DNA from: a virus
Direction: 5' to 3' (one strand)
DNA: 48,865 nt
IMG/VR virus record: IMGVR_UViG_3300025864_000500
Coordinates: 1-48,865 of that record
In this document: positions 27,390-48,865 of the stretch, one piece after another
Position numbering within the stretch: position 1 is the first letter of the stretch
Layout: each line of letters starts with the position of its first letter
Made by a program: the position numbers and the translations under genes
The notes under the pieces: model-generated
Told to the model about the DNA's origin: nothing
The model's database searches: none
The model's input: only the letters and a program-made list of their open reading frames with translations

Positions 27390-28022
27390 TCAGAACAAGG
27401 TAGGGGTGCTGTCCACCTTCCTTGTTGGTGCAAAGTCCTGAAATTCAGCACAATCGACATCATGCCTTGATATTCCATCAACTCCGTCAACTGCCAATGC
27501 TTGTTCTTCCATATCTTCTTCGCCCTGTAATTTGTTTGCATTGTTTATCAACACACTTTCTTCATAGAAATACTTCAAGCCCCTTCCCATTGATTTACCC
27601 TTCCTTGTGTGCATGTCAAATGCGTAGTCAGGTATCTCCAAGTACTCCGTTTTCTGCATCTCCCAATAGACTGTGATTGCATGGTCCATGTATCTTGACT
27701 TCCTGCTTCTGACAAGAGCGATGACTGCTTGAGTGAAAGGCAACTTCTGCGGGTGGGATTTCTCCTGCTTCTCAGCCAACATGTCAAAGGCTTGCTTGAG
27801 GGCCATGATCTGAACAATCATGCTTGGTTCTCCGAGTCCACAATCCTCACTTGCCATGATGACCATACGCTTCCAGGCATACTTGGCATAATTGCTTTCA
27901 TACAACTCCGCTGCCCAATACATTGCATACTTTTCGTCACAACGTCTGATTGATTTTTGAAAGGCCGATGCCACTTGGAAAAAATCATAACCCTTCTTTG
28001 TCTTTACTTCATAATCTGCCAT
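27390..28022 (-). CDS. Stand-alone RarA/MgsA-like C-terminal domain protein
   Basis: 210 residues. SAFQKSIRRCDEKYAMYWAAEL and ASEDCGL match the helical C-terminal domain of RarA/MgsA clamp-loader-like ATPases, but the AAA+ ATPase half is absent: there is no Walker motif and the protein begins at this domain. In bacteria this domain tetramerises and helps RarA act at stalled forks. Here it may bind host RarA or replisome proteins. Sits between the modification operon and the terminase genes. The tail past about 150 is acidic and low complexity. Confidence 0.75.
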   Translation of the reverse strand: MADYEVKTKKGYDFFQVASAFQKSIRRCDEKYAMYWAAELYESNYAKYAWKRMVIMASEDCGLGEPSMIVQIMALKQAFDMLAEKQEKSHPQKLPFTQAVIALVRSRKSRYMDHAITVYWEMQKTEYLEIPDYAFDMHTRKGKSMGRGLKYFYEESVLINNANKLQGEEDMEEQALAVDGVDGISRHDVDCAEFQDFAPTRKVDSTPTLF

Positions 28023-28121: not shown

Positions 28122-28862
28122 TCAATAAGGTATCTTGAGAGTCCTTTGATATTCGTGCTTCCTTGTGGCAAGTTTGGTGTCTTCCTTCAGGGCAATAGCA
28201 TCACCGAACATTTGCTTCAGAAAGAGGGTGTCTGCCCTCTCCTGGTCTTTCGTTCTCAGGTTGGCACAACCACCGGTGTTTCCAAAAGTCTTCTGAGCAA
28301 GTGCTGTGAATCTTTGGTCATTCCAGCTGTATCGATGCACATAGGCATTGTAAGCCGAAATCCAATAGTCATCAGTCACAACTGCCTTTTCATGGAAGTA
28401 TAGCTTGGAGCCTTCGAGCATCCCAAGGTCTCCATTAAGTATCCCTGTCAAGTGGATAGGGTGCATTTCATCGTAGGAAAGGGGGTTGGTTTCCTTGGAT
28501 AGTCCGAAAAGGAAAGCTCCTGCAAGCTTGGCACAGTTACCAACGTACTGAATGATGTCGTATGCTTCGTCGGGATCCATCTTGGCTTTTTCTCCTGCCT
28601 GAACGTAATTTCTTGAGATGGCTGTGATGTCATCGTCTATCATGAAGACATTAGGAAACTTTTCATGAATGAACTGACGTTTCAAGGTCAGGCCCTTCAA
28701 ACTGTCAGGGTGGGACAGAATTTCAATACCAGCATTGTGTTCAGCGTACAGGGCAACTTCAGCTTCCGGAACACACAGAATTACATTGCTGACGTTTTTC
28801 TTTGTGATTACCCTGTCGGCTCTACCCATTGAAGGGATTACTATTTTTATATCTACTGCCAT
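28122..28862 (-). CDS. Glycosyltransferase of the TET-associated (TAGT) type
   Basis: 246 residues. GT-A-like pattern: KIVIPSMGRADRVITKKNV at the start, HPDSLKGLTLKRQFI, the DxD-like acidic MIDDDI, then a Gly/Asn-rich block (TFGNTGGCANLRTK). The 'PSMGRADR' start and spacing match the TAGT family, predicted to glycosylate modified pyrimidines in phage DNA. Last gene of a five-gene operon of very tight overlaps. No C5-hydroxymethylase, TET or DNA methylase is in the window, so the acceptor could come from outside it or be something other than DNA. Confidence 0.75.
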   Translation of the reverse strand: MAVDIKIVIPSMGRADRVITKKNVSNVILCVPEAEVALYAEHNAGIEILSHPDSLKGLTLKRQFIHEKFPNVFMIDDDITAISRNYVQAGEKAKMDPDEAYDIIQYVGNCAKLAGAFLFGLSKETNPLSYDEMHPIHLTGILNGDLGMLEGSKLYFHEKAVVTDDYWISAYNAYVHRYSWNDQRFTALAQKTFGNTGGCANLRTKDQERADTLFLKQMFGDAIALKEDTKLATRKHEYQRTLKIPY

Positions 28863-28864
28863 GA

Positions 28865-29494
28865 CTATTCTTGGAAATGGTCTCTAAACTGATCAACGTC
28901 AATGATAATAGCCTTGCCTGTTCGAGAGTTTTTGTAGGACTGGGCCTTGGTTATTCCGAGGACTGTTTCAAGGTAGGCGGTGTCGATGGAGTTTTTGGAA
29001 ACAATGATTACAGCATCATACTTTTCCGAGAACTTGGGAACAAGAGGATAGGCACAATTCGTGTTGTCATACTGCTTGATCTGCTTTTCGTAGTCGGTAA
29101 CAAAAGCCTTGAGTTCATCCTCCCTAAAGCCGATGTCCTTCAGGAACTCCTTTTCAAAGTAAAGGGCAAGCATGGCTTGGTCGATGGCAGCTACATTCTT
29201 ACTCAAGCGAAGGTTCAATTCCTTTTCCTTTTCGAGTGGAAGATTGACTTCGGTGCAGGGAACTTCGGTGTAACCCATCTCCTTGGCTATCCGTACCCTT
29301 TGATGACCGGTCACAATTACATCGATGCGGTCTTCATGGATATTGACCACAATCGGATCCACGAAGCCAAACCGTTTTATTGAAGTGCGAATGTCTTCGT
29401 CTTCCTTTGGGGAAGCTTTCTTGGGATTGTACCCTGACTCCTTGAGTGAATAGATGTCCTTATAGACAATTTTTAATTGTTCCTTTTTTGCCAT
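28865..29494 (-). CDS. ParB/Srx-like domain protein
   Basis: 209 residues. ParB N-terminal signature: ESGYNPKKAS, FGFVDPIVVNI, then IVTGHQRVRIAKEMGY, the G-H-x-R box that binds and hydrolyses nucleotide in ParB-like folds. The C-terminal half is unlike partition proteins and there is no parA. Stand-alone ParB-like proteins often sit beside DNA-modification genes of phages. Overlaps the decarboxylase-like gene by 22 nt and precedes the glycosyltransferase by 2 nt. Confidence 0.85.
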   Translation of the reverse strand: MAKKEQLKIVYKDIYSLKESGYNPKKASPKEDEDIRTSIKRFGFVDPIVVNIHEDRIDVIVTGHQRVRIAKEMGYTEVPCTEVNLPLEKEKELNLRLSKNVAAIDQAMLALYFEKEFLKDIGFREDELKAFVTDYEKQIKQYDNTNCAYPLVPKFSEKYDAVIIVSKNSIDTAYLETVLGITKAQSYKNSRTGKAIIIDVDQFRDHFQE

Positions 29495-30528
29495 AGCTTA
29501 TTTAGTTTGCTGACGTTTTTGAAAATCTTGTGATAGATAGGCCTGTCTCCTGTGACGTTCATCAAGGAATACATGAGCATCTTGATACTCCTGACAGCCG
29601 TAAAGAAATAGAGGAACAGGGCCAACATGGAAGCGGTGAACAGCACTCCATGACCGAAAATCAAGGTGGCTATAAAGCAGACAAGCAGAACTTCAAAGAC
29701 TAGATTGTTGAAAGTAGAGAAGGTCTTTTTCAGGTTTTGGACAAACAGCTCAAACACACCATCGGGTATTGCTTGCTTGATCATGCTTAGGATTTCTTTC
29801 TTGTCAACGATAATCTTGTCAGCATTGTCATAAATGTAAGGACCGGCTATTGACTGATACAATTCAACCTTGTCTCCTTCATGAACAAGCAAGTGTCTTT
29901 TAGTGAAAATATCAACCTGACTGCCCCTGCAAATAAGGTATTCAAAACCCCATAGTTTTTTGTTGGCGGCAATCGCCCTTGAAATGTACTTGTCCATAGT
30001 GATAACAACAAACTCATCATCATAGTCAATGACAATGACTGTATTCTTGACCTCGTATCTTCCATTTTTCTTAGGAATCAATTCTCCAGGCTCAACCATT
30101 TCAAGGATCCCATCAGGGCCGACATTAGCACATAGGTAGGAATTTGATGTTCTACCAATATTGCCGACAACGTGCATGTTCAGCTTGTTGAGGAAAATCG
30201 TAACATGATTGTACACCTGATGATTGTTCTTCATACCTGTGAAACGGACGAACACTTCCTTTGTCAAGTTGTCATTCTTACTGATGTGCTCGAAAGGTTT
30301 GTTGTAAGCGACATTGGTTACAATGCCATTGGCAGGTGAAGCCATCCCTCCCCTGTAATTCTTTCCTGATGCAGCCAGGCTCCCATAGTAGAAAACAATG
30401 TCATCGAACCAATTGTTCAGGAACAATGTCAAAAAGATGGCAACCAATGCAAGCGTTATGTCGTAAAGGAAAAACAGAGGAACAATGAACGGTGCAACGA
30501 ACCTCAGAATATTGAATGCTTTAATCAT
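29473..30528 (-). CDS. Phosphatidylserine-decarboxylase-like membrane protein
   Basis: 351 residues. Hydrophobic segments near 8-40 and about 290-325 flank a soluble core. The core has PSD family blocks: GGMASPANGIVTNV (61-74, the 'SPaDG' block), NHVTIFLNKLNMHVVGNIG (the 'FLs.lDvH.n' block) and, later, HEGDKVELYQSIAG in place of the usual 'Ge.iG.f.fGS' autocleavage strand. The conserved Gly before the processing Ser is missing (Gln-Ser), so pyruvoyl formation is doubtful or altered. In this operon it might decarboxylate an amino acid attached by the ATP-grasp ligase; a lipid role is the alternative. Confidence 0.65.
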   Translation of the reverse strand: MIKAFNILRFVAPFIVPLFFLYDITLALVAIFLTLFLNNWFDDIVFYYGSLAASGKNYRGGMASPANGIVTNVAYNKPFEHISKNDNLTKEVFVRFTGMKNNHQVYNHVTIFLNKLNMHVVGNIGRTSNSYLCANVGPDGILEMVEPGELIPKKNGRYEVKNTVIVIDYDDEFVVITMDKYISRAIAANKKLWGFEYLICRGSQVDIFTKRHLLVHEGDKVELYQSIAGPYIYDNADKIIVDKKEILSMIKQAIPDGVFELFVQNLKKTFSTFNNLVFEVLLVCFIATLIFGHGVLFTASMLALFLYFFTAVRSIKMLMYSLMNVTGDRPIYHKIFKNVSKLNKLWQKRNN

Positions 30529-31369
30529 AGATTTGTCTTATTACATATTCGAGAATGTCTTCATACCTGTACCATGTGTTTTCCTTAATTTGCGAGGGAG
30601 CAATTCTTTCCACTTGATACCCTTCGAGATGGGCAAACGGATTAAAACCAAAAGGAATATTCACAAGGGCTGTTCCGCTTATCCTTTTCGATGCTTCAAC
30701 GTAATAAAGGACACCGGCCTGACCTTCTATCAACTGCAGGTGGAAAATACCATTGAATAATCCAATCAACTTAGTGAAATAGGCCTGCTCAATAATCTCC
30801 CTGGCTGCTTCGTACACAGGATGGTCCAATGGCAGAAACTTGACATACTGATCATAACCATCCTTCAGCTGTACTTCCCTAGCCCACATATCAGAACCGA
30901 TACAATCAACGACATACTCAGCTTTCTTGTCAACGAGTTCACTGATGCAGACATCGTCAAGCATCTGAAGTCCTTTAGAGCCGGCTGATTCTGAGTTTGG
31001 CCTGATGCAGACATTGCTATAACTAAACGTGGTTGGAATGCGAACCTTGAGATAATCAACTCTTTCAGCGAGGATTTCATTGACTCTAAGCTTGTCATAC
31101 CAAACAGAATTGACTCCGTACTTTTTGGGGTTTCTCTGTCTTGTCAGCTCGTCAGCAGGAAATACAATAAAATCATCAAAGGAGTCCATTTCGTTGGAAT
31201 TAATGACTGCTCCAATTGGCGACAAGTGAGTGAATATAGGGTTCGTGTCTGCCATAACCAAGTTACGACCATTTACTAATCCCCTTCTCTGAGCGTACAA
31301 GTAGCAAAGCTTGGCAGAATAACCGGCACGACCTCCTGATTCAAAAACAACATAGTCCTTGTCGCTCAT
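30521..31369 (-). CDS. ATP-grasp family ligase
   Basis: 282 residues. Starts SDKDYVVFESGGRAGYS and has the ATP-grasp features: VCIRPNSESAGSKGLQML (phosphate-binding loop region), YVVDCIGSDMWAREV and YVEASKRISGTALVN, the acidic-Asn-Arg type metal block (E-x-x-x-R-x-S-G-T). Such enzymes make amide or ester bonds between a carboxylate and an amine with ATP. Overlaps the deacetylase gene by 4 nt and the decarboxylase-like gene by 8 nt. A likely role is adding an amino acid to an amine freed by the deacetylase; that is inference. Confidence 0.75.
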   Translation of the reverse strand: MSDKDYVVFESGGRAGYSAKLCYLYAQRRGLVNGRNLVMADTNPIFTHLSPIGAVINSNEMDSFDDFIVFPADELTRQRNPKKYGVNSVWYDKLRVNEILAERVDYLKVRIPTTFSYSNVCIRPNSESAGSKGLQMLDDVCISELVDKKAEYVVDCIGSDMWAREVQLKDGYDQYVKFLPLDHPVYEAAREIIEQAYFTKLIGLFNGIFHLQLIEGQAGVLYYVEASKRISGTALVNIPFGFNPFAHLEGYQVERIAPSQIKENTWYRYEDILEYVIRQIYD

Positions 31370-32010
31370 CTGTATAATTTCTGAATATAGAACACTTCGG
31401 CAAATGGCATCCCTGATTCAAGTCCTCTCATGGCAGCAAGCGTCAGGATCCCTTTTTCATTAAGCGGGGATGGCGGTGCTTTCTGCTGTGTCAGATAGTT
31501 TTTGAATAGGCTGACTTTATCATTGATGACATCGGTAATTTCATGATACCATCTTCCCCCAGGAATACTTGTCATTTCACAACCGACAAACGGATACTCA
31601 TAAAGTGCAACAAGCGATGGCATGAAACCTTCCTTCAATCTCATGGAAGCAAGGAAGCAGTCGTACAATTTCTTGTGGTCTTGGTGGTGCGAAGGGTAGC
31701 AACAGAACACTTCGTCAGGTTCAAATTCAGTAATCTGCCGATCAATTGCACTTGTAAGACTTTGAGCATCAACAGTATCAAGGATACCATCATGACCTAA
31801 TACGAAAATATGCTGACTTGCATTTAGGGATTCAACCACAGCATCGAACTCAGCCATTCTGACGGCAATATCTTGCTTGATGTCGGTTCCACCGATGGTT
31901 GCTATGAACAACCGGATATCAGAACCTTTGGCTTTCTCGTGAAGCAAATAACCCCCGCATCCGAGTGTTTCATCGTCTGCGTGGGGTGCTATGACAAGTA
32001 TCTTCTTCAT
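31366..32010 (-). CDS. PIG-L family N-acetyl hydrolase
   Basis: 214 residues with the start at 32010 (MKKILVIAPHADDETLGCGG), which is preferred over a GTG 18 codons upstream that lies within the operator. Zinc residues are visible: His10, Asp12-Asp13 in APHADDE, and PSHHQDHKK (His108/109, Asp111, His112). PIG-L enzymes deacetylate N-acetylglucosamine-type sugars. First gene of the operon, controlled by operator e, and overlapping the ATP-grasp gene by 4 nt. Confidence 0.9.
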   Translation of the reverse strand: MKKILVIAPHADDETLGCGGYLLHEKAKGSDIRLFIATIGGTDIKQDIAVRMAEFDAVVESLNASQHIFVLGHDGILDTVDAQSLTSAIDRQITEFEPDEVFCCYPSHHQDHKKLYDCFLASMRLKEGFMPSLVALYEYPFVGCEMTSIPGGRWYHEITDVINDKVSLFKNYLTQQKAPPSPLNEKGILTLAAMRGLESGMPFAEVFYIQKLYR

Positions 32011-32031: not shown

Positions 32032-32063
32032 CAAATATACTAACAATGTGGGTAATACACACA
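32032..32063 (-). promoter_or_regulatory. Operator site e with TATATTTG -7 element (promoter of the modification operon)
   Basis: 32047-32063 reads TGTGGGTAATACACACA: both half-sites complete, with a single mismatched pair around the central base. Seven bases on, the minus strand has TATATTTG (32039-32032), a perfect TAnnTTTG. The deacetylase start is 22 nt further. Upstream (32064-32520) I see about 450 nt with no convincing gene. Confidence 0.85.
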
Positions 32064-32523
32064 CTTATGTAGCATATAAGTGCCATCTTCATGCTTTTCT
32101 TGTCAAATACTTTGCAATATCCAAACGACCTATTCCTTTCGGTCAGGTTGCTTTTTCTAATTTCATAAAGGGTTTAGGGAGTATCTACTGCTTAGGTTTA
32201 ACCTTCGAAAGCGAATTGAGAAGTGAAAATTTGGACAATAATCTGTAAGAAACTGAGGACTGCAACGGATGCATCGTCATGATGTCGACAGAATGATTCT
32301 GGGAGGCATCTATCAATGTTTCCACTCATTTGAAAGGGCAAGCAATGTTATTGATTATAAGGATTTTAGCAGCATGTCCCAAAACATGAATTTTTTGTAC
32401 ATAAATTAAAAATAAAGTTGTACATTGTTATGTTTTTTCTGCTCGGATTTCTGTGGGTTTTATAAGTTAGTGACTTAAAAAAAGCAAAGGAATGGATTTT
32501 TAAAACCCTAATTAGTAACTACT

Positions 32524-32622: not shown

Positions 32623-34629
32623 ATGGACATTCAGGACAAAACCAAGGAAGAACTCCAAAAGGAGTTAACGGAATTACTTTATGAGAATGATTCTTTAAAG
32701 GCATTAAAAGGGGAACGAGCAGCAGAGTTAATCCTTGCAAACAAGGAGCTTGCCTATCAAAACAAAGAGAAAGAAAAACGTGCAGATAAGTTGATCATTG
32801 CTAACAAAGAACTTGTCTTTCAGAACGAAGAGAAGGAAAAACGGGCGGCAGAACTGGTCATTGCAAACAAGGAACTTGCTTTTCAAAATGAAGAAAAAGA
32901 AAAGCGGGAAGCAGAATTAACAAGAAGTAAACACCTACAGGACGAGACTGGACGATTAGCAAGAGTTGGCGGTTGGGAATTTAGCCTTAAGAATAATGAG
33001 CTGAGTTGGTCGGAAGTGACATATGGGATATTTGAAGTCGAACCGGATTATCAACCAACAATCGAATCTGCTATCAATTTCTACGCTCCAGAATCAATAC
33101 CAGTTATCTCTGAAGCAGTGCGTCAAGCCATTGAGGAAGGCAAGTCTTTCGATGTAGACCTGCAATTGATTACAGCAAAGCAAAACAGCATTTGGGTTCG
33201 GGCTATTGGTCAAGCATATCGTGACAACGGGGAAATAGTGAAAATTGTTGGTGGGATCCAGGACATCAACGATCGCATTCTGACAGCACATAAATTAATA
33301 ATTGCAAACAAGGAACTTGCTATTCAAAATAATGAAAAGGAAAAACGGGCTGCAGAGTTAATCATTGCAAATAAAGAACTTGTCTTTCAGAACGAAGAGA
33401 AAGAAAAACGGGCGGCAGAACTGGTCATTGCAAATAAAGAACTTGTCTTTCAGAACGAAGAGAAAGAAAAACGGGCGGCAGAACTGGTCATTGCAAAAGA
33501 ACACGCTGAACAAAGCGACCGTTTAAAATCTGCCTTTTTAACCAATATGTCGCATGAAATTCGAACTCCAATGAACGGCATTTTAGGGTTTTCCGGATTA
33601 TTGAAAGAACCCGGGCTTACTGGTGATGAGCAGCAAGAGTATATCAGCATCATAGAGAAAAGTGGAGCTCGTATGCTCAATATCATTAATGACATTGTTG
33701 ACATTTCAAAAATAGAAGCTGGTCTGATGAACGTTAATATTACAGAAACTGATATAAACGGGAAAATCGAATCCGTTTATCTCTTCTTTAAACCCGAAGT
33801 TGATGGAAAAGGAATGCAGCTTCTCTTTAAAAAAACCTTACCGACAAAAAAAGCCATTATTAGAACAGACAATGAAAAAGTCTACTCAATTCTCACCAAT
33901 CTTGTGAAAAATGCCATTAAATACAGCGACGAAGGCATTATAGAATTTGGGTATCAAAAAAAGGACGAAACCCTTGAATTTTACGTGAAAGACACAGGAA
34001 TAGGGATTCCCAAAAACAGGCAGTCAGCCATATTTGAGCGTTTTATTCAGGCTGATATTACCAATAAAAGGGCTCACCAGGGAGCAGGATTGGGCTTGTC
34101 GATTTCAAAAGCCTATGTGGAGATGCTTGGCGGCAAAATTTGGGTAGAAAGCGAAGAAGGCATTGGCTCAACATTTTATTTCACCTTACCTTACAATGCT
34201 GAACCGAAAGAAAAAAATGTTGTTAGAAATATTGTTCCGATGCAAAACGAAAAGAATCAGATTAAAGCCCTGAAAATATTAATAGCCGATGATGATGAAA
34301 CATCGGAAATGTTTATTTCAATAACCACCAAAGAGTTTAGCAAAGAAGTTATAAAAGCAAGTACGGGCAATAAAGCCATCGAAATTTGCCATACCAATCC
34401 TGACCTTGATTTGATTCTCATGGATATTCAAATGCCTGATTTGAATGGTTATGAAGCAACCCGACAAATCCGTCAATTCAACAAGGACGTTGTCATAATA
34501 GCACAAACAGCTTTTGGACTGTCAGGTGACAGAGAAAAGGCAATTGAAGCGGGCTGCAACGATTATATCGCAAAGCCCATTGATAAAGATCAATTATTGG
34601 CATTAATTCAAAAGCATTTAAAGAATTAA
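32623..34629 (+). CDS. Soluble hybrid histidine kinase (coiled coil - PAS - HisKA - HATPase - REC)
   Basis: 668 residues with no transmembrane segment. Domains: N-terminal coiled coil of near-identical 21-residue units (about 30-105), PAS domain (about 115-215, GGWEFSLKNNELSWSE), a second block of the same units (about 225-300), HisKA with phospho-acceptor His311 (SHEIRTPMNGILGFS), HATPase with N-box near 427-432 and DTGIGIP near 457, and a receiver with Asp601 (LILMDIQMPD) and Lys651. All catalytic residues are present. It is on the plus strand against the phage genes, bounded by repeats B and C, and about 80 percent identical (by eye) to the kinase fragment at 48082-48865. Probably cargo that rewires host signalling; it does not look like a phage gene. 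Confidence 0.92.
   Translation: MDIQDKTKEELQKELTELLYENDSLKALKGERAAELILANKELAYQNKEKEKRADKLIIANKELVFQNEEKEKRAAELVIANKELAFQNEEKEKREAELTRSKHLQDETGRLARVGGWEFSLKNNELSWSEVTYGIFEVEPDYQPTIESAINFYAPESIPVISEAVRQAIEEGKSFDVDLQLITAKQNSIWVRAIGQAYRDNGEIVKIVGGIQDINDRILTAHKLIIANKELAIQNNEKEKRAAELIIANKELVFQNEEKEKRAAELVIANKELVFQNEEKEKRAAELVIAKEHAEQSDRLKSAFLTNMSHEIRTPMNGILGFSGLLKEPGLTGDEQQEYISIIEKSGARMLNIINDIVDISKIEAGLMNVNITETDINGKIESVYLFFKPEVDGKGMQLLFKKTLPTKKAIIRTDNEKVYSILTNLVKNAIKYSDEGIIEFGYQKKDETLEFYVKDTGIGIPKNRQSAIFERFIQADITNKRAHQGAGLGLSISKAYVEMLGGKIWVESEEGIGSTFYFTLPYNAEPKEKNVVRNIVPMQNEKNQIKALKILIADDDETSEMFISITTKEFSKEVIKASTGNKAIEICHTNPDLDLILMDIQMPDLNGYEATRQIRQFNKDVVIIAQTAFGLSGDREKAIEAGCNDYIAKPIDKDQLLALIQKHLKN
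32716..33500 (+). repeat. 63-bp in-frame tandem repeats in the kinase gene
   Basis: Units encoding ANKELVFQNEEKEKRAAELVI occur in two arrays, 32716-32930 and 33289-33500, on either side of the PAS domain. Units 33391-33453 and 33454-33497 are identical at the DNA level. 21 residues is three heptads, so the arrays form an extendable coiled coil. Recombination between units would change the length in steps of 21 residues without breaking the frame. Confidence 0.85.
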
Positions 34630-34789: not shown

Positions 34790-35674
34790 ATGTATTATAG
34801 ACGTAAGATCTTATTGGCTCTATTAGAGACATTTAATAACAAGCTTGACAAAATAAGTTTGCAAAAATTGTTATTGTTAATTGCTAAATATCAACAAAAA
34901 CCTGATTACTTTTTTGTACCCTATAAATTTGGTTGTTATTCCTTTCAAGCTAATGCAGACTTGACAACAATGATAAAATACAATCAGGTTAAATCTGAAA
35001 ATAATTGTTGGATTAAAACAGATTCTGATAATTATTTTTCAAGTTTGAAGGAAAATGACAAACAAGCTATTAATAAAGTTAAATCACTTTATGGTAATAA
35101 AAGTGCAGATGAGCTTATAAAGATTACTTATTTGAAGTACCCTTATTATGCTGTTAATAGCACAATTGCTAAAGACAGACTTAGTGATTCAGAATACAAG
35201 TTGGTTTTAGACGCACGACCAATATCAAATAAGACGATTTTATATACTATTGGATACGAGGGTGTTAGCTTAGAGGAATATTTGAACAAGCTTATATTGA
35301 ATGATATTAATGTTCTTTGTGATGTTCGTAAAAATCCTATAAGTATGAAGTTCGGCTTTAGCAAAGTCCAATTGAAAAAAGCTTGTGAAGGTCTTGGGAT
35401 TGAATATGTTCACATTCCCGATTTTGGAATAGATTCGGATAAGCGGCAAGAGTTAAATACCCAATTGGATTACAATAATTTGTTTGCTTTATATCGTTCA
35501 AGTACTTTGAATGAAACAAAAGAAAAGCAAGAAGCATTATTGGCTTTGTTAATTGAAAGGAAACGTGTTGCATTAACTTGTTTTGAGGCAAACGTATGCC
35601 AATGTCACCGGAAACATTTAGCCGATGCAATTGTAGGATTACCCGGATTTAAATACGAACTGAGACACATTTAA
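34790..35674 (+). CDS. DUF488 protein with N-terminal Panacea/SocA-like domain
   Basis: 294 residues. The N-terminal 90 residues (RRKILLALLETFNNKLDKIS, then SLQKLLLLIAKYQQ and VPYKFGCYSFQANADL) resemble Panacea/DUF4065-type domains. The C-terminal half is DUF488: LYTIGYEGVSLEEYLNKL, VLCDVRKNPIS, then CFEANVCQCHRKHLA with the conserved Cys-x-Cys-His. DUF488 proteins are of unknown function and frequent on mobile islands. AT-rich like its partner, which follows after 1 nt, and unlike the phage genes. Confidence 0.8.
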   Translation: MYYRRKILLALLETFNNKLDKISLQKLLLLIAKYQQKPDYFFVPYKFGCYSFQANADLTTMIKYNQVKSENNCWIKTDSDNYFSSLKENDKQAINKVKSLYGNKSADELIKITYLKYPYYAVNSTIAKDRLSDSEYKLVLDARPISNKTILYTIGYEGVSLEEYLNKLILNDINVLCDVRKNPISMKFGFSKVQLKKACEGLGIEYVHIPDFGIDSDKRQELNTQLDYNNLFALYRSSTLNETKEKQEALLALLIERKRVALTCFEANVCQCHRKHLADAIVGLPGFKYELRHI

Positions 35675-35675
35675 G

Positions 35676-36512
35676 ATGGCATTAATCAAGCTACTTATAA
35701 CTGTCACAACCTACCCATTGCCTTCGAGAAGTTATGATGAATTGGTTTGTACGGCTGGAGTAACAGAAAATGGTGACTGGATTCGTATATATCCTGTGCC
35801 ATTACAGTTTTTGAAAGGATTAAGAAAGGATGGAAAAGTTAAAACATTTAAGTACAACTGGATTGAGGTTGATTTAAAAAGAAGAACTGATGATTTTCGC
35901 CCAGAGAGTCATTCTCCAACCGATTATTCATTTAAAGATATCATAGTCCATGGCGATATTGGAACTGAGAATAATTGGGCGGAAAGAAAAAAGTTCTGTA
36001 CTCAGAATGTTTATACTGAAATATCACAACTAATTGCTGACTCTCAAGCACCTAGTAATATTTCACTTGCGACTTTTAAACCAAGTCAATTTATTAGCTT
36101 TGAAATTGAAGAAGACGATCGGGAATGGAAAAAAGAATGGAGAGAGCAGTTCAAGCAACTTCAACTTAATTTTGGAGAAACAGAAGAAGGTTCTCAACGA
36201 GAAATAATTTCAAAAATACCATATAAGTTTTTCTATAAATTTAAAGATTCTCAAGGTAGGATAAGTCGTTTAATGATTGAAGATTGGGAAATCGGAGCAT
36301 TATATTGGAATTGCCTGAGATCTTCTGATGGTGATGAAGAAAGAGCCTTGCAGAAAGTTAGAGAGCAATACGAATCAAACTTTTTTAATAATAAGGATCT
36401 CTATTTATTTCTGGGGACAACTAAGGAATGGCATATGCGCAGAGGTAGGAATCCATTTGTTATTATTGGAGTTTTCTATCCAAAAAAAGAGAACCAACTC
36501 AGACTTTTTTAG
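35676..36512 (+). CDS. Partner protein of the DUF488 gene, function unknown
   Basis: 278 residues. Starts LIKLLITVTTYPLPSRSYDE and VCTAGVTENGDWIRIYPVP, followed by charged, mostly helical regions (DDREWKKEWREQFKQLQ). I recognise it only as the usual neighbour of DUF488 genes, not as a family with known function. No membrane segment. The 1-nt gap to the DUF488 gene and shared AT-rich composition show that the two move and are expressed together; a toxin-antitoxin or defence pair is possible but unproven. Confidence 0.7.
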   Translation: MALIKLLITVTTYPLPSRSYDELVCTAGVTENGDWIRIYPVPLQFLKGLRKDGKVKTFKYNWIEVDLKRRTDDFRPESHSPTDYSFKDIIVHGDIGTENNWAERKKFCTQNVYTEISQLIADSQAPSNISLATFKPSQFISFEIEEDDREWKKEWREQFKQLQLNFGETEEGSQREIISKIPYKFFYKFKDSQGRISRLMIEDWEIGALYWNCLRSSDGDEERALQKVREQYESNFFNNKDLYLFLGTTKEWHMRRGRNPFVIIGVFYPKKENQLRLF

Positions 36513-37567: not shown

Positions 37568-38131
37568 TTATATTGATTTTTTAAACTGCTTAACGAATAC
37601 CCGAAATTCAGGCCATGATGCCATCCAATTGTCATAAGTGTAAAGCATATTGTAAATGCTACATGGTCTCCGACCAACAATGGCAGCGATGTTATTGTGA
37701 TGCATATCAAGATTGTCCTTACAGTAGTTCGCCAATATTGCCCTGCCTGCTGTGTATGCAACTTCCCTTGATGCTGACTTGATATTGTTGATGCCAACAA
37801 CATCTTCAATTACCTTGATGATTCTATTCATCTCATCTTCTTCAAGAGCCGGCTGAAAGTTTACTGAGATCCCAATACTTTTAGCAATCATCATTAATGA
37901 CCTTGGTTCGGGGTGGGAGTTGTAGCCATGTATCATCAGGACTGAATCACACTTCTCAAGTTCAGGCAGGCATTTCCCAAGCCTTAATTCCCATTTCTCA
38001 GTGTTGTCAGACTTGGCTGAATTATACACTTCAAAGCCTTCCTTTATCAACATCGCTTCTGCTGTGTAAAACAGTCCTATCTGCTTCTGACTGGCACCTT
38101 CTATCTTCCCTGAAAGGAACACTTTACTCAT
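37568..38131 (-). CDS. DUF4406 domain fused to a DnaA domain IV-like DNA-binding domain
   Basis: 187 residues. The N-terminal 95 residues match DUF4406 (nucleoside-2-deoxyribosyltransferase-like): KVFLSGKIEGASQKQIGLFY, then CDSVLMIHGYNSHPEPRSLM. The C-terminal half looks like the DnaA helix-turn-helix: SREVAYTAGRAILANYC, IAAIVGRRPCSIYNMLYTYD. The fusion suggests a protein that binds a replication origin or host DnaA boxes and carries a nucleotide-handling domain. Second half assigned on pattern only. Confidence 0.65.
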   Translation of the reverse strand: MSKVFLSGKIEGASQKQIGLFYTAEAMLIKEGFEVYNSAKSDNTEKWELRLGKCLPELEKCDSVLMIHGYNSHPEPRSLMMIAKSIGISVNFQPALEEDEMNRIIKVIEDVVGINNIKSASREVAYTAGRAILANYCKDNLDMHHNNIAAIVGRRPCSIYNMLYTYDNWMASWPEFRVFVKQFKKSI

Positions 38132-48081: not shown

Positions 48082-48865
48082 TTAATTCTTGAAATACTTT
48101 TGTATTAGTGAAAGTAATTCCCCTTTGTTAATGGGTTTTGCGATATAATCGTTGCATCCTGCATCCTTTGCCTTTTCTTTGTCGCCAGTTAGTCCATAAG
48201 CTGTTTGCGCAATTATGACAACATCTTTGTTGAATTCTCGGATTTGTCGGGTTGCTTCATGATGTTTCATCGTCTTCGGCAATCAATATTTTAAGGTTTT
48301 TAATCTCATTCTCTTTGTCTTCTGCAGAAATGGATTTTCCAACAACTTTTTTTTCTTCCGGTTCAGCATTATATGGTAATGTGAAATAAAATATGGAGCC
48401 AATGCCAACTTCACTTTCCACCCAAATATTTCCGCCAAGCATTTCCACATAGGCTTTAGAAATTGACAAGCCCAATCCTGCTCCTTGAAATGCCTTTTTA
48501 TCGGTAATATCAGCCTGTATAAAACGCTCAAAAATGACATCCTGTCTGTCTTTTGGAATCCCAATACCTGTGTCTTTCACGTAAAATTCAAGGGTTTCAC
48601 CCCTTTTTATATAGCCAAATTCTATTGTCCCTTCATTGCTGAATTTAATGGCATTTTTTACAAGATTGGTGAGAATTGAATAGACTTTTTCATTGTCTGT
48701 TCTAATAATGGCTTCTTTTGCCGGCAAGGTGTTTTTAAAGAGAAGCTGCATTCCTTTTCCTTCAACCTGGGGTTTAAAGAAGAGATAAATGGATTCGATA
48801 TTCTCGTTTATATAAGTTTCTGTAATATTAACGTTCATCAGACCAGCTTCTATTTTTGAAATGTC
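48082..48865 (-). pseudogene. Hybrid histidine kinase fragment, receiver domain deleted (host)
   Basis: Continues past the right edge. Minus strand: HATPase domain (DIS-KIEAGLMNVNITET, EFYVKDTGIGIPKDRQ, GAGLGLSISKAYVEMLGG) about 80 percent identical by eye to the prophage kinase. After AEDDETS the frame hits a stop, and the reading then resumes in another frame with EATRQIREFNKDVVIIAQ to the end. About 48 residues are missing, including the phospho-acceptor Asp, and the deletion is not a multiple of three. Thus a broken receiver: the kinase would lose its C-terminal output. Just beyond the likely attachment site, so probably host. Confidence 0.85.

What the first reader, a model, noticed from the sequence alone, without database searches (positions are those of the whole stretch)
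28122..32010. Five-gene biosynthetic operon: deacetylase, ATP-grasp, PSD-like decarboxylase, ParB-like, TAGT glycosyltransferase
The genes overlap by 4-22 nt, or are separated by 2 nt, and share one operator. PIG-L enzymes free an amine, ATP-grasp enzymes attach carboxylates, PSD-like enzymes decarboxylate, and TAGT enzymes glycosylate bases in phage DNA with ParB-like neighbours. Together they could make an aminoacyl-sugar or ethanolamine-like decoration on a DNA base that resists host nucleases. No hydroxymethylase or methylase is seen, so the acceptor is unknown.
Basis: partly seen in the sequence, partly recalled or inferred. Interest (0 to 1): 0.8.

Follow-up and report, generated by a model that had tools for sequence, protein, structure and literature searches.

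The report
Phage amino-sugar tailoring gene cassette
A temperate Bacteroidota phage carries a five-gene operon that most likely trims and re-decorates an amino sugar, probably one fixed to its own DNA, using a three-enzyme module that also sits in bacterial envelope-type operons and that sister phages replace with a different enzyme.

Summary
Five genes (28122-32010, minus strand) overlap by 4, 8 and 22 nt or lie 2 nt apart: PIG-L deacetylase, ATP-grasp ligase, membrane PSD-like protein, ParB-domain protein, TAGT glycosyltransferase. The same five genes in the same order occur in two other viral contigs at 30-74% protein identity.
(1) ParB-TAGT is a two-gene core beside the MgsA_C and terminase genes in over 20 phages. 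(2) The genes before it are swappable: nine contigs carry PIG-L plus WbqC where this phage has PIG-L plus ATP-grasp plus PSD-like. (3) PIG-L/ATP-grasp/PSD-like also forms a conserved chromosomal operon in Bacteroidales, with a GT4 glycosyltransferase and a small flippase-like gene. (4) PIG-L, a glycosyltransferase and ParB cluster independently in Vibrio, Arthrobacter and Stenotrophomonas phages; one of these, DLP3, has DNA resistant to 15 restriction enzymes.
Best reading: a modular amino-sugar tailoring cassette. PIG-L frees an amine, ATP-grasp acylates it, PSD-like may decarboxylate the result. The sugar is probably on phage DNA (about 50%). A membrane glycolipid product is the serious rival (about 30%). 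The acceptor is unknown.

The parts
31366..32010 (-). PIG-L family de-N-acetylase, 214 aa (ATG start at 32010)
   Evidence: PF02585 E 2.7e-17; residues H10, D12, D13 and Q110-D111-H112 of the zinc-binding motifs invariant among aligned phage PIG-Ls
30521..31369 (-). ATP-grasp ligase, 282 aa
   Evidence: AF2 model pLDDT 76, pTM 0.80; Foldseek best match L-amino-acid ligase RizA E 8.9e-8, then PurK and biotin carboxylase; conserved Q212, E225 and SKRISGT motif in 12 relatives
29473..30528 (-). PSD-like membrane protein, 351 aa: hydrophobic N- and C-terminal regions around a phosphatidylserine-decarboxylase-like core
   Evidence: hhalign with true PSD family, probability 95.8%, E 7e-9; His119 and Gly202-Ser203 invariant, Asn67 in place of the PSD Asp in all 12; hydrophobic segments
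28865..29494 (-). ParB N-terminal-domain protein with a conserved C-terminal region, 209 aa
   Evidence: PF02195 E 9.5e-8; phrog_498 'DNA methyltransferase' 3e-28 and phrog_620 7e-28; paired with TAGT in related contigs long enough to show it
28122..28862 (-). TAGT-family (GT-A) glycosyltransferase, 246 aa
   Evidence: PF20691 E 1.9e-13; phrog_842 beta-glucosyl-HMC-alpha-glucosyltransferase E 1.1e-20; DDD76-78 and D165 invariant in 13 relatives
27390..28022 (-). MgsA_C-domain protein, conserved syntenic neighbour; not needed for the proposed chemistry
   Evidence: PF12002 E 7.2e-15; lies between TAGT and the terminase genes in nearly all related contigs long enough to show it
32032..32082 (-). 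candidate promoter region: TATATTTG (32032-32039) and inverted repeat CACTTAT-N7-ATAAGTG (32062-32082)
   Evidence: sequence; not above chance; weak

Best explanation
The operon is a modular amino-sugar tailoring cassette joined to a ParB-TAGT pair, and it most likely hypermodifies the phage's own DNA. TAGT transfers an N-acetylhexosamine-type sugar to an unknown acceptor, with the ParB-domain protein helping it engage DNA. PIG-L removes the acetyl group and frees the amine. ATP-grasp then makes an amide on that amine, plausibly with an amino acid through a side-chain carboxylate. The PSD-like protein removes the alpha-carboxylate and leaves a terminal amine, such as a beta-alanyl or 4-aminobutyryl group. 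WbqC fills the acylation slot in sister phages. Shown here: gene order, homologies, conserved catalytic residues, WbqC exchange, and the chromosomal homologues. Inferred: DNA as target, the sugar, the order of steps, the acyl group and the decarboxylation.
For: The five-gene order is conserved. Genes upstream of ParB-TAGT are swappable: nine loci (L012-L016, L018-L020, L033) have PIG-L>WbqC>ParB>TAGT (WbqC PF08889 E 1.8e-64). The PIG-L tree joins an ATP-grasp-type phage with a WbqC-type phage (98/96), whereas the TAGT tree leans to joining the ATP-grasp types (91/93); this suggests the middle block was exchanged on its own. PIG-L, a glycosyltransferase and ParB recur together in Vibrio, Arthrobacter and Stenotrophomonas phages, several with WbqC. 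DLP3 DNA resists 15 restriction enzymes (PMC7326821). T6 TAGT glycosylates DNA (PMC13216743). ParB-domain genes often neighbour phage DNA cytosine carboxymethyltransferases (PMC12783734). E. coli PSD stays active with D90N (PMC7952604), so the conserved Asn does not rule out a pyruvoyl enzyme.
Against: No hydroxymethylase was found in the window or seven related contigs, and C5-methylase only in two; the TET/JBP search was uninformative because its control was silent. PSD-like keeps its membrane segments, which is odd for an enzyme acting on DNA. Its relatives lie in envelope-type operons. L017 has lost the PSD core in frame but keeps ATP-grasp, ParB and TAGT, so decarboxylation is dispensable there. 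The link between DLP3's cluster and its DNA resistance is correlation only.
Confidence: 0.5

Rival explanations
1. PIG-L, ATP-grasp and PSD-like remodel a membrane amino-glycolipid of the infected or lysogenic cell, as their chromosomal counterparts probably do, for example to block superinfection. ParB-TAGT is a separate DNA or other function that merely shares the operon.
For: Chromosomal operon OEP>GT4>EamA>PIG-L>ATP-grasp>PSD-like>DUF3108-like, found with this order in 11 Bacteroidales loci; PSD-like keeps hydrophobic segments at both ends; canonical PSDs act on membrane lipids (PMC7952604); the phage is temperate, with an integrase.
Against: The phages lack the GT4 and flippase of the chromosomal operon. 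The block swaps with WbqC exactly between PIG-L and ParB, with translational overlap kept. Phages with PIG-L, a glycosyltransferase and ParB recur without a recognised membrane enzyme.
Confidence: 0.3
2. The triad builds a modified UDP-amino-sugar donor or lipid-linked donor before transfer, and TAGT then moves the finished sugar to DNA. The membrane step happens on a lipid carrier.
For: Reconciles the membrane PSD-like protein with a DNA glycosyltransferase. The same triad can serve different glycosyltransferases: GT4 in chromosomes, TAGT in phages.
Against: No carrier-lipid glycosyltransferase was recognised in the window proteins scanned. No direct evidence.
Confidence: 0.1
3. TAGT glycosylates a protein or an RNA, and the cassette tailors that glycan.
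For: No base-hydroxylating enzyme was found.
Against: The closest characterised TAGT acts on DNA; ParB is a DNA-associated domain and is its constant partner.
Confidence: 0.07

Closest known systems
T6 TAGT / beta-glucosyl-HMC-alpha-glucosyltransferase (PF20691, phrog_842)
   Same: Same glycosyltransferase family; DDD motif kept
   Different: T-even TAGT adds a second glucose to glucosyl-hmC made with a hydroxymethylase and a first glycosyltransferase; neither was found here
Stenotrophomonas phage DLP3 sugar cluster (PIG-L, WcaG, WecE, methyltransferase, GT, ParBc, next to terminase)
   Same: PIG-L plus a glycosyltransferase plus ParB beside terminase; no ThyA-type hydroxymethylase found; its DNA is restriction-resistant
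   Different: A different glycosyltransferase family rather than TAGT; aminotransferase and epimerase instead of ATP-grasp and PSD-like
Bacteroidales chromosomal OEP-GT4-EamA-PIG-L-ATP-grasp-PSD-DUF3108 operon (L036-L038, L065-L072)
   Same: Same three homologous enzymes in the same order
   Different: No ParB or TAGT; has a GT4 and a small transporter instead; phage copies only 31-40% (ATP-grasp, PSD-like) and about 50-55% (PIG-L) identical
Phosphatidylserine decarboxylase (PSD)
   Same: Core homology by profile alignment; reactive Gly-Ser and His positions kept
   Different: Asp replaced by Asn in all members; extra C-terminal membrane region; below Pfam detection
CmoX/CmoY 5-carboxymethylcytosine system of phage S-B43 and relatives
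   Same: ATP-dependent amide ligase plus ParB-domain neighbours in phages
   Different: CmoY-type ligases are AMP-forming and act on a carboxyl handle on cytosine; no sugar involved
Mycothiol and bacillithiol pathways (from general knowledge)
   Same: Logic of glycosyltransferase, then PIG-L deacetylase, then amino-acid ligation on glucosamine
   Different: Small-molecule thiol products; the ligases are not ATP-grasp; no decarboxylase

Membership tests
TAGT DNA glycosyltransferases (PF20691) | sequence match over the curated cut-off | tested here: met
   51.2 bits against a cut-off of 27.5
TAGT DNA glycosyltransferases (PF20691) | GT-A acidic motif conserved | tested here: met
   D76-D78 and D165 invariant in 13 sequences
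TAGT DNA glycosyltransferases (PF20691) | hydroxymethyl-pyrimidine acceptor enzyme in the genome | tested here: inconclusive
   No PF00303 in the window or seven related contigs; TET/JBP search control silent; window may be incomplete
TAGT DNA glycosyltransferases (PF20691) | glycosylated DNA | not testable with these tools
   Needs LC-MS of nucleosides
PIG-L de-N-acetylases | PF02585 match and zinc-binding motif | tested here: met
   63.9 bits against 28.2; H10, D12, D13 and Q110-D111-H112 invariant
ATP-grasp ligases | fold | tested here: met
   177 PDB matches at E up to 1e-3, the 50 listed being ATP-grasp enzymes or complexes that contain one
ATP-grasp ligases | metal-binding acidic/amide residues | tested here: met
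   Q212 and E225 invariant; the usual Asn is Ser227; residue mapping by analogy with carbamoyl-phosphate synthetase, from general knowledge
Phosphatidylserine decarboxylase | homology of the core | tested here: met
   hhalign 95.8%, E 7e-9; no Pfam hit
Phosphatidylserine decarboxylase | reactive Gly-Ser and catalytic His | tested here: met
   G202-S203 and H119 invariant
Phosphatidylserine decarboxylase | Asp of the Asp-His-Ser maturation triad | tested here: not met
   Asn67 in all 12; E. coli D90N remains active, malarial Asp-to-Ala does not mature. So filed as PSD-like, not as a PSD
Phosphatidylserine decarboxylase | self-cleavage to a pyruvoyl enzyme and PS decarboxylation | not testable with these tools
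   Needs protein biochemistry

The most novel reading that the evidence does not exclude
A membrane-anchored relative of phosphatidylserine decarboxylase, working after an ATP-grasp ligase, finishes a DNA-linked or carrier-linked amino sugar in phages: a lipid or envelope-type three-enzyme module re-targeted to viral DNA by coupling it to ParB-TAGT instead of a GT4 and flippase, and interchangeable with WbqC.
Probability: 0.35. Interest if true: 0.85.

Novelty: new variant of a known kind. Interest (0 to 1): 0.62.

Why it matters
Many phages carry a TAGT without the alpha- or beta-glucosyltransferase that normally makes its substrate, and what those TAGTs do is unknown (PMC13216743). This locus suggests one answer: they belong to ParB-TAGT units that take on exchangeable amino-sugar tailoring genes. 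The exchange of WbqC for ATP-grasp plus PSD-like predicts different end groups on a common amino sugar, which LC-MS can test. It also points to an unstudied chromosomal Bacteroidales operon whose product is unknown. If DNA is the target, it would be an unusual case of a lipid-enzyme family working in DNA modification.

Tried and rejected
Nucleotide search of phage records found nothing. Single-protein searches for ATP-grasp and PSD-like found no phage relatives except a 100% identical contig; relatives came through TAGT. The AF2 model of PSD-like was poor (pLDDT 60) and its fold search meaningless, so profile comparison was used instead. The PSD-like profile found no PDB sequence. Shared-operator claim: patterns not above chance. 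ThyA-type hydroxymethylase as acceptor source: absent. TET/JBP: the search rang nowhere, so absence is not shown. Paper searches gave no open paper linking WbqC or PSD-like to phage DNA modification; most subscription papers are not held. The idea that the whole triad moved between host and phage as one recent unit is not supported: the phage PIG-L falls among PIG-Ls of WbqC-type phages, with weak resolution at that fork.

Full report
OBSERVATION. The window is a 48,865-base IMG/VR virus record. Integrase, RecT, SSB, NinG, terminase, lysozyme and holin genes mark it as a temperate tailed phage. The five genes are present as described: PIG-L 31366-32010, ATP-grasp 30521-31369, PSD-like 29473-30528, ParB 28865-29494 and TAGT 28122-28862, all on the minus strand, overlapping by 4, 8 and 22 nt with a final gap of 2 nt. 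The operator claim is not supported beyond chance.

IDENTITIES. PIG-L, ParB and TAGT pass Pfam cut-offs. ATP-grasp and PSD-like match no family library. An AF2 model of ATP-grasp built from 12 relatives (pLDDT 76, pTM 0.80) matches ATP-grasp structures, best the L-amino-acid ligase RizA, then PurK and biotin carboxylase. The PSD-like family (12 members) aligns with seven Bacteroidales proteins whose sequences carry PSD motifs, at probability 95.8% and E 7e-9 over the core. The reactive Gly-Ser (202-203) and the His (119) are invariant. The Asp of the maturation triad is Asn in all 12. In E. coli PSD the D90N mutant is cleaved and stays active, with Asp142 able to stand in (PMC7952604), while in malarial PSD the Asp-to-Ala mutant fails to mature (PMC10172927). 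Activity is therefore possible but unproven. Hydrophobic segments at both ends are kept in phage and chromosomal members.

RELATIVES IN PHAGES. A scan with TAGT gave 25 viral contigs. Local tblastn showed ParB>TAGT>MgsA_C>TerS>TerL as the constant order wherever the contig is long enough, apart from larger gaps and undetected terminase genes in the more distant members. Upstream of ParB the content varies. The window, L010 and L011 have PIG-L>ATP-grasp>PSD-like. L012-L016, L018-L020 and L033 have PIG-L>WbqC (the WbqC ORF was read in the representatives L012, L014, L018, L020 and L033; L013, L015, L016 and L019 have the same gene spacing). L022-L030 show neither. L017 has ATP-grasp and an 84-aa form of the PSD-like gene in which the membrane N-terminus is joined in frame to the C-terminal tail and the whole core is missing. 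ParB-TAGT pairs near MgsA_C also occur in Bacteroidota genomes. The PIG-L tree joins L011 (ATP-grasp type) with L012 (WbqC type) at 98/96. The TAGT tree leans to joining L010 with L011 (91/93), and the ParB tree joins L012 with L014/L016 at 95/96. So the middle block has probably been exchanged independently of its flanks.

RELATIVES IN CHROMOSOMES. A profile of ATP-grasp found three Bacteroidales MAG contigs. There, and in eight more genomes, the order is outer-membrane efflux protein, GT4 glycosyltransferase, small EamA-type transporter, PIG-L, ATP-grasp, PSD-like, DUF3108-like. It is rare overall: one strong match in 393 genomes of the order, about ten in 200 of the family. This arrangement suggests an amino-glycolipid or other envelope product; that is inference.

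INDEPENDENT CLUSTERS. Phages unrelated to this one combine PIG-L, a glycosyltransferase and ParB: Vibrio V-YDF132 and PG28 (with WbqC), Arthrobacter DanielleIgnace (with WbqC), and Stenotrophomonas DLP3, where ParB is one gene away from terminase. KarBoss has PIG-L, a sugar epimerase, an aminotransferase, a glycosyltransferase and a ParB-like gene. DLP3 DNA resisted all 15 restriction enzymes tried, and its authors concluded that it is modified, chemistry unknown (PMC7326821). DLP3 has no ThyA-type hydroxymethylase by the search used. This is correlation, but it bears on the DNA reading. Escherichia phage IME392 carries PIG-L near a 5-hmdU kinase-type protein and a thymidylate-synthase-type gene.

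MECHANISM. Most likely, TAGT fixes an N-acetylhexosamine to phage DNA, PIG-L frees the amine, and either WbqC or ATP-grasp acylates it. PSD-like would then decarboxylate an amino acid attached through its side chain, leaving a free amine; PSD chemistry suits a free alpha-amino acid linked through its side chain. The L017 deletion form suggests that this last step is optional. The weak points are the unknown acceptor, the membrane location of PSD-like, and the envelope-type context of its chromosomal relatives. I put DNA at about 0.5 and membrane glycolipid at about 0.3.

VERDICT. Classed as a new variant of a known kind (phage TAGT-type glycosylation with sugar tailoring), interest 0.62.

Noticed in passing
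window 27390-28022: A stand-alone MgsA C-terminal-domain protein without the ATPase core lies between TAGT and terminase in this phage and nearly all ParB-TAGT relatives; its role is unexplained.
   Followed up: partly
L017 669-923: In-frame loss of the whole PSD core, leaving an 84-aa membrane mini-protein between an ATP-grasp gene and ParB.
   Followed up: partly
window 28865-29494, C-terminal third: The ParB-domain protein has a conserved C-terminal region (KFSEKYDAVIIVSKN...SYKN) shared across relatives, of unknown function.
   Followed up: partly
window 34790-36512 (+): DUF488 protein with a weak SocA/Panacea-like N-terminal match, followed 1 nt later by an unmatched 278-aa ORF; possibly a toxin-antitoxin or defence pair.
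   Followed up: no
window 32623-34629 (+): Hybrid histidine kinase-like ORF with repeated NKELAFQNEEKEKRA coiled-coil units, divergent from the operon.
   Followed up: no
window 48257-48838: HATPase_c-domain ORF just beyond the integrase at the right edge; may be host flank.
   Followed up: no
window 37568-38131: DUF4406 protein with weak similarity to nucleoside 2-deoxyribosyltransferases.
   Followed up: no
L102 (Stenotrophomonas phage DLP3): Its PIG-L/GT/ParB cluster lies next to terminase and holds the gene annotated Erm; the authors suggested LPS modification for the GT, yet the phage DNA is restriction-resistant.
   Followed up: partly
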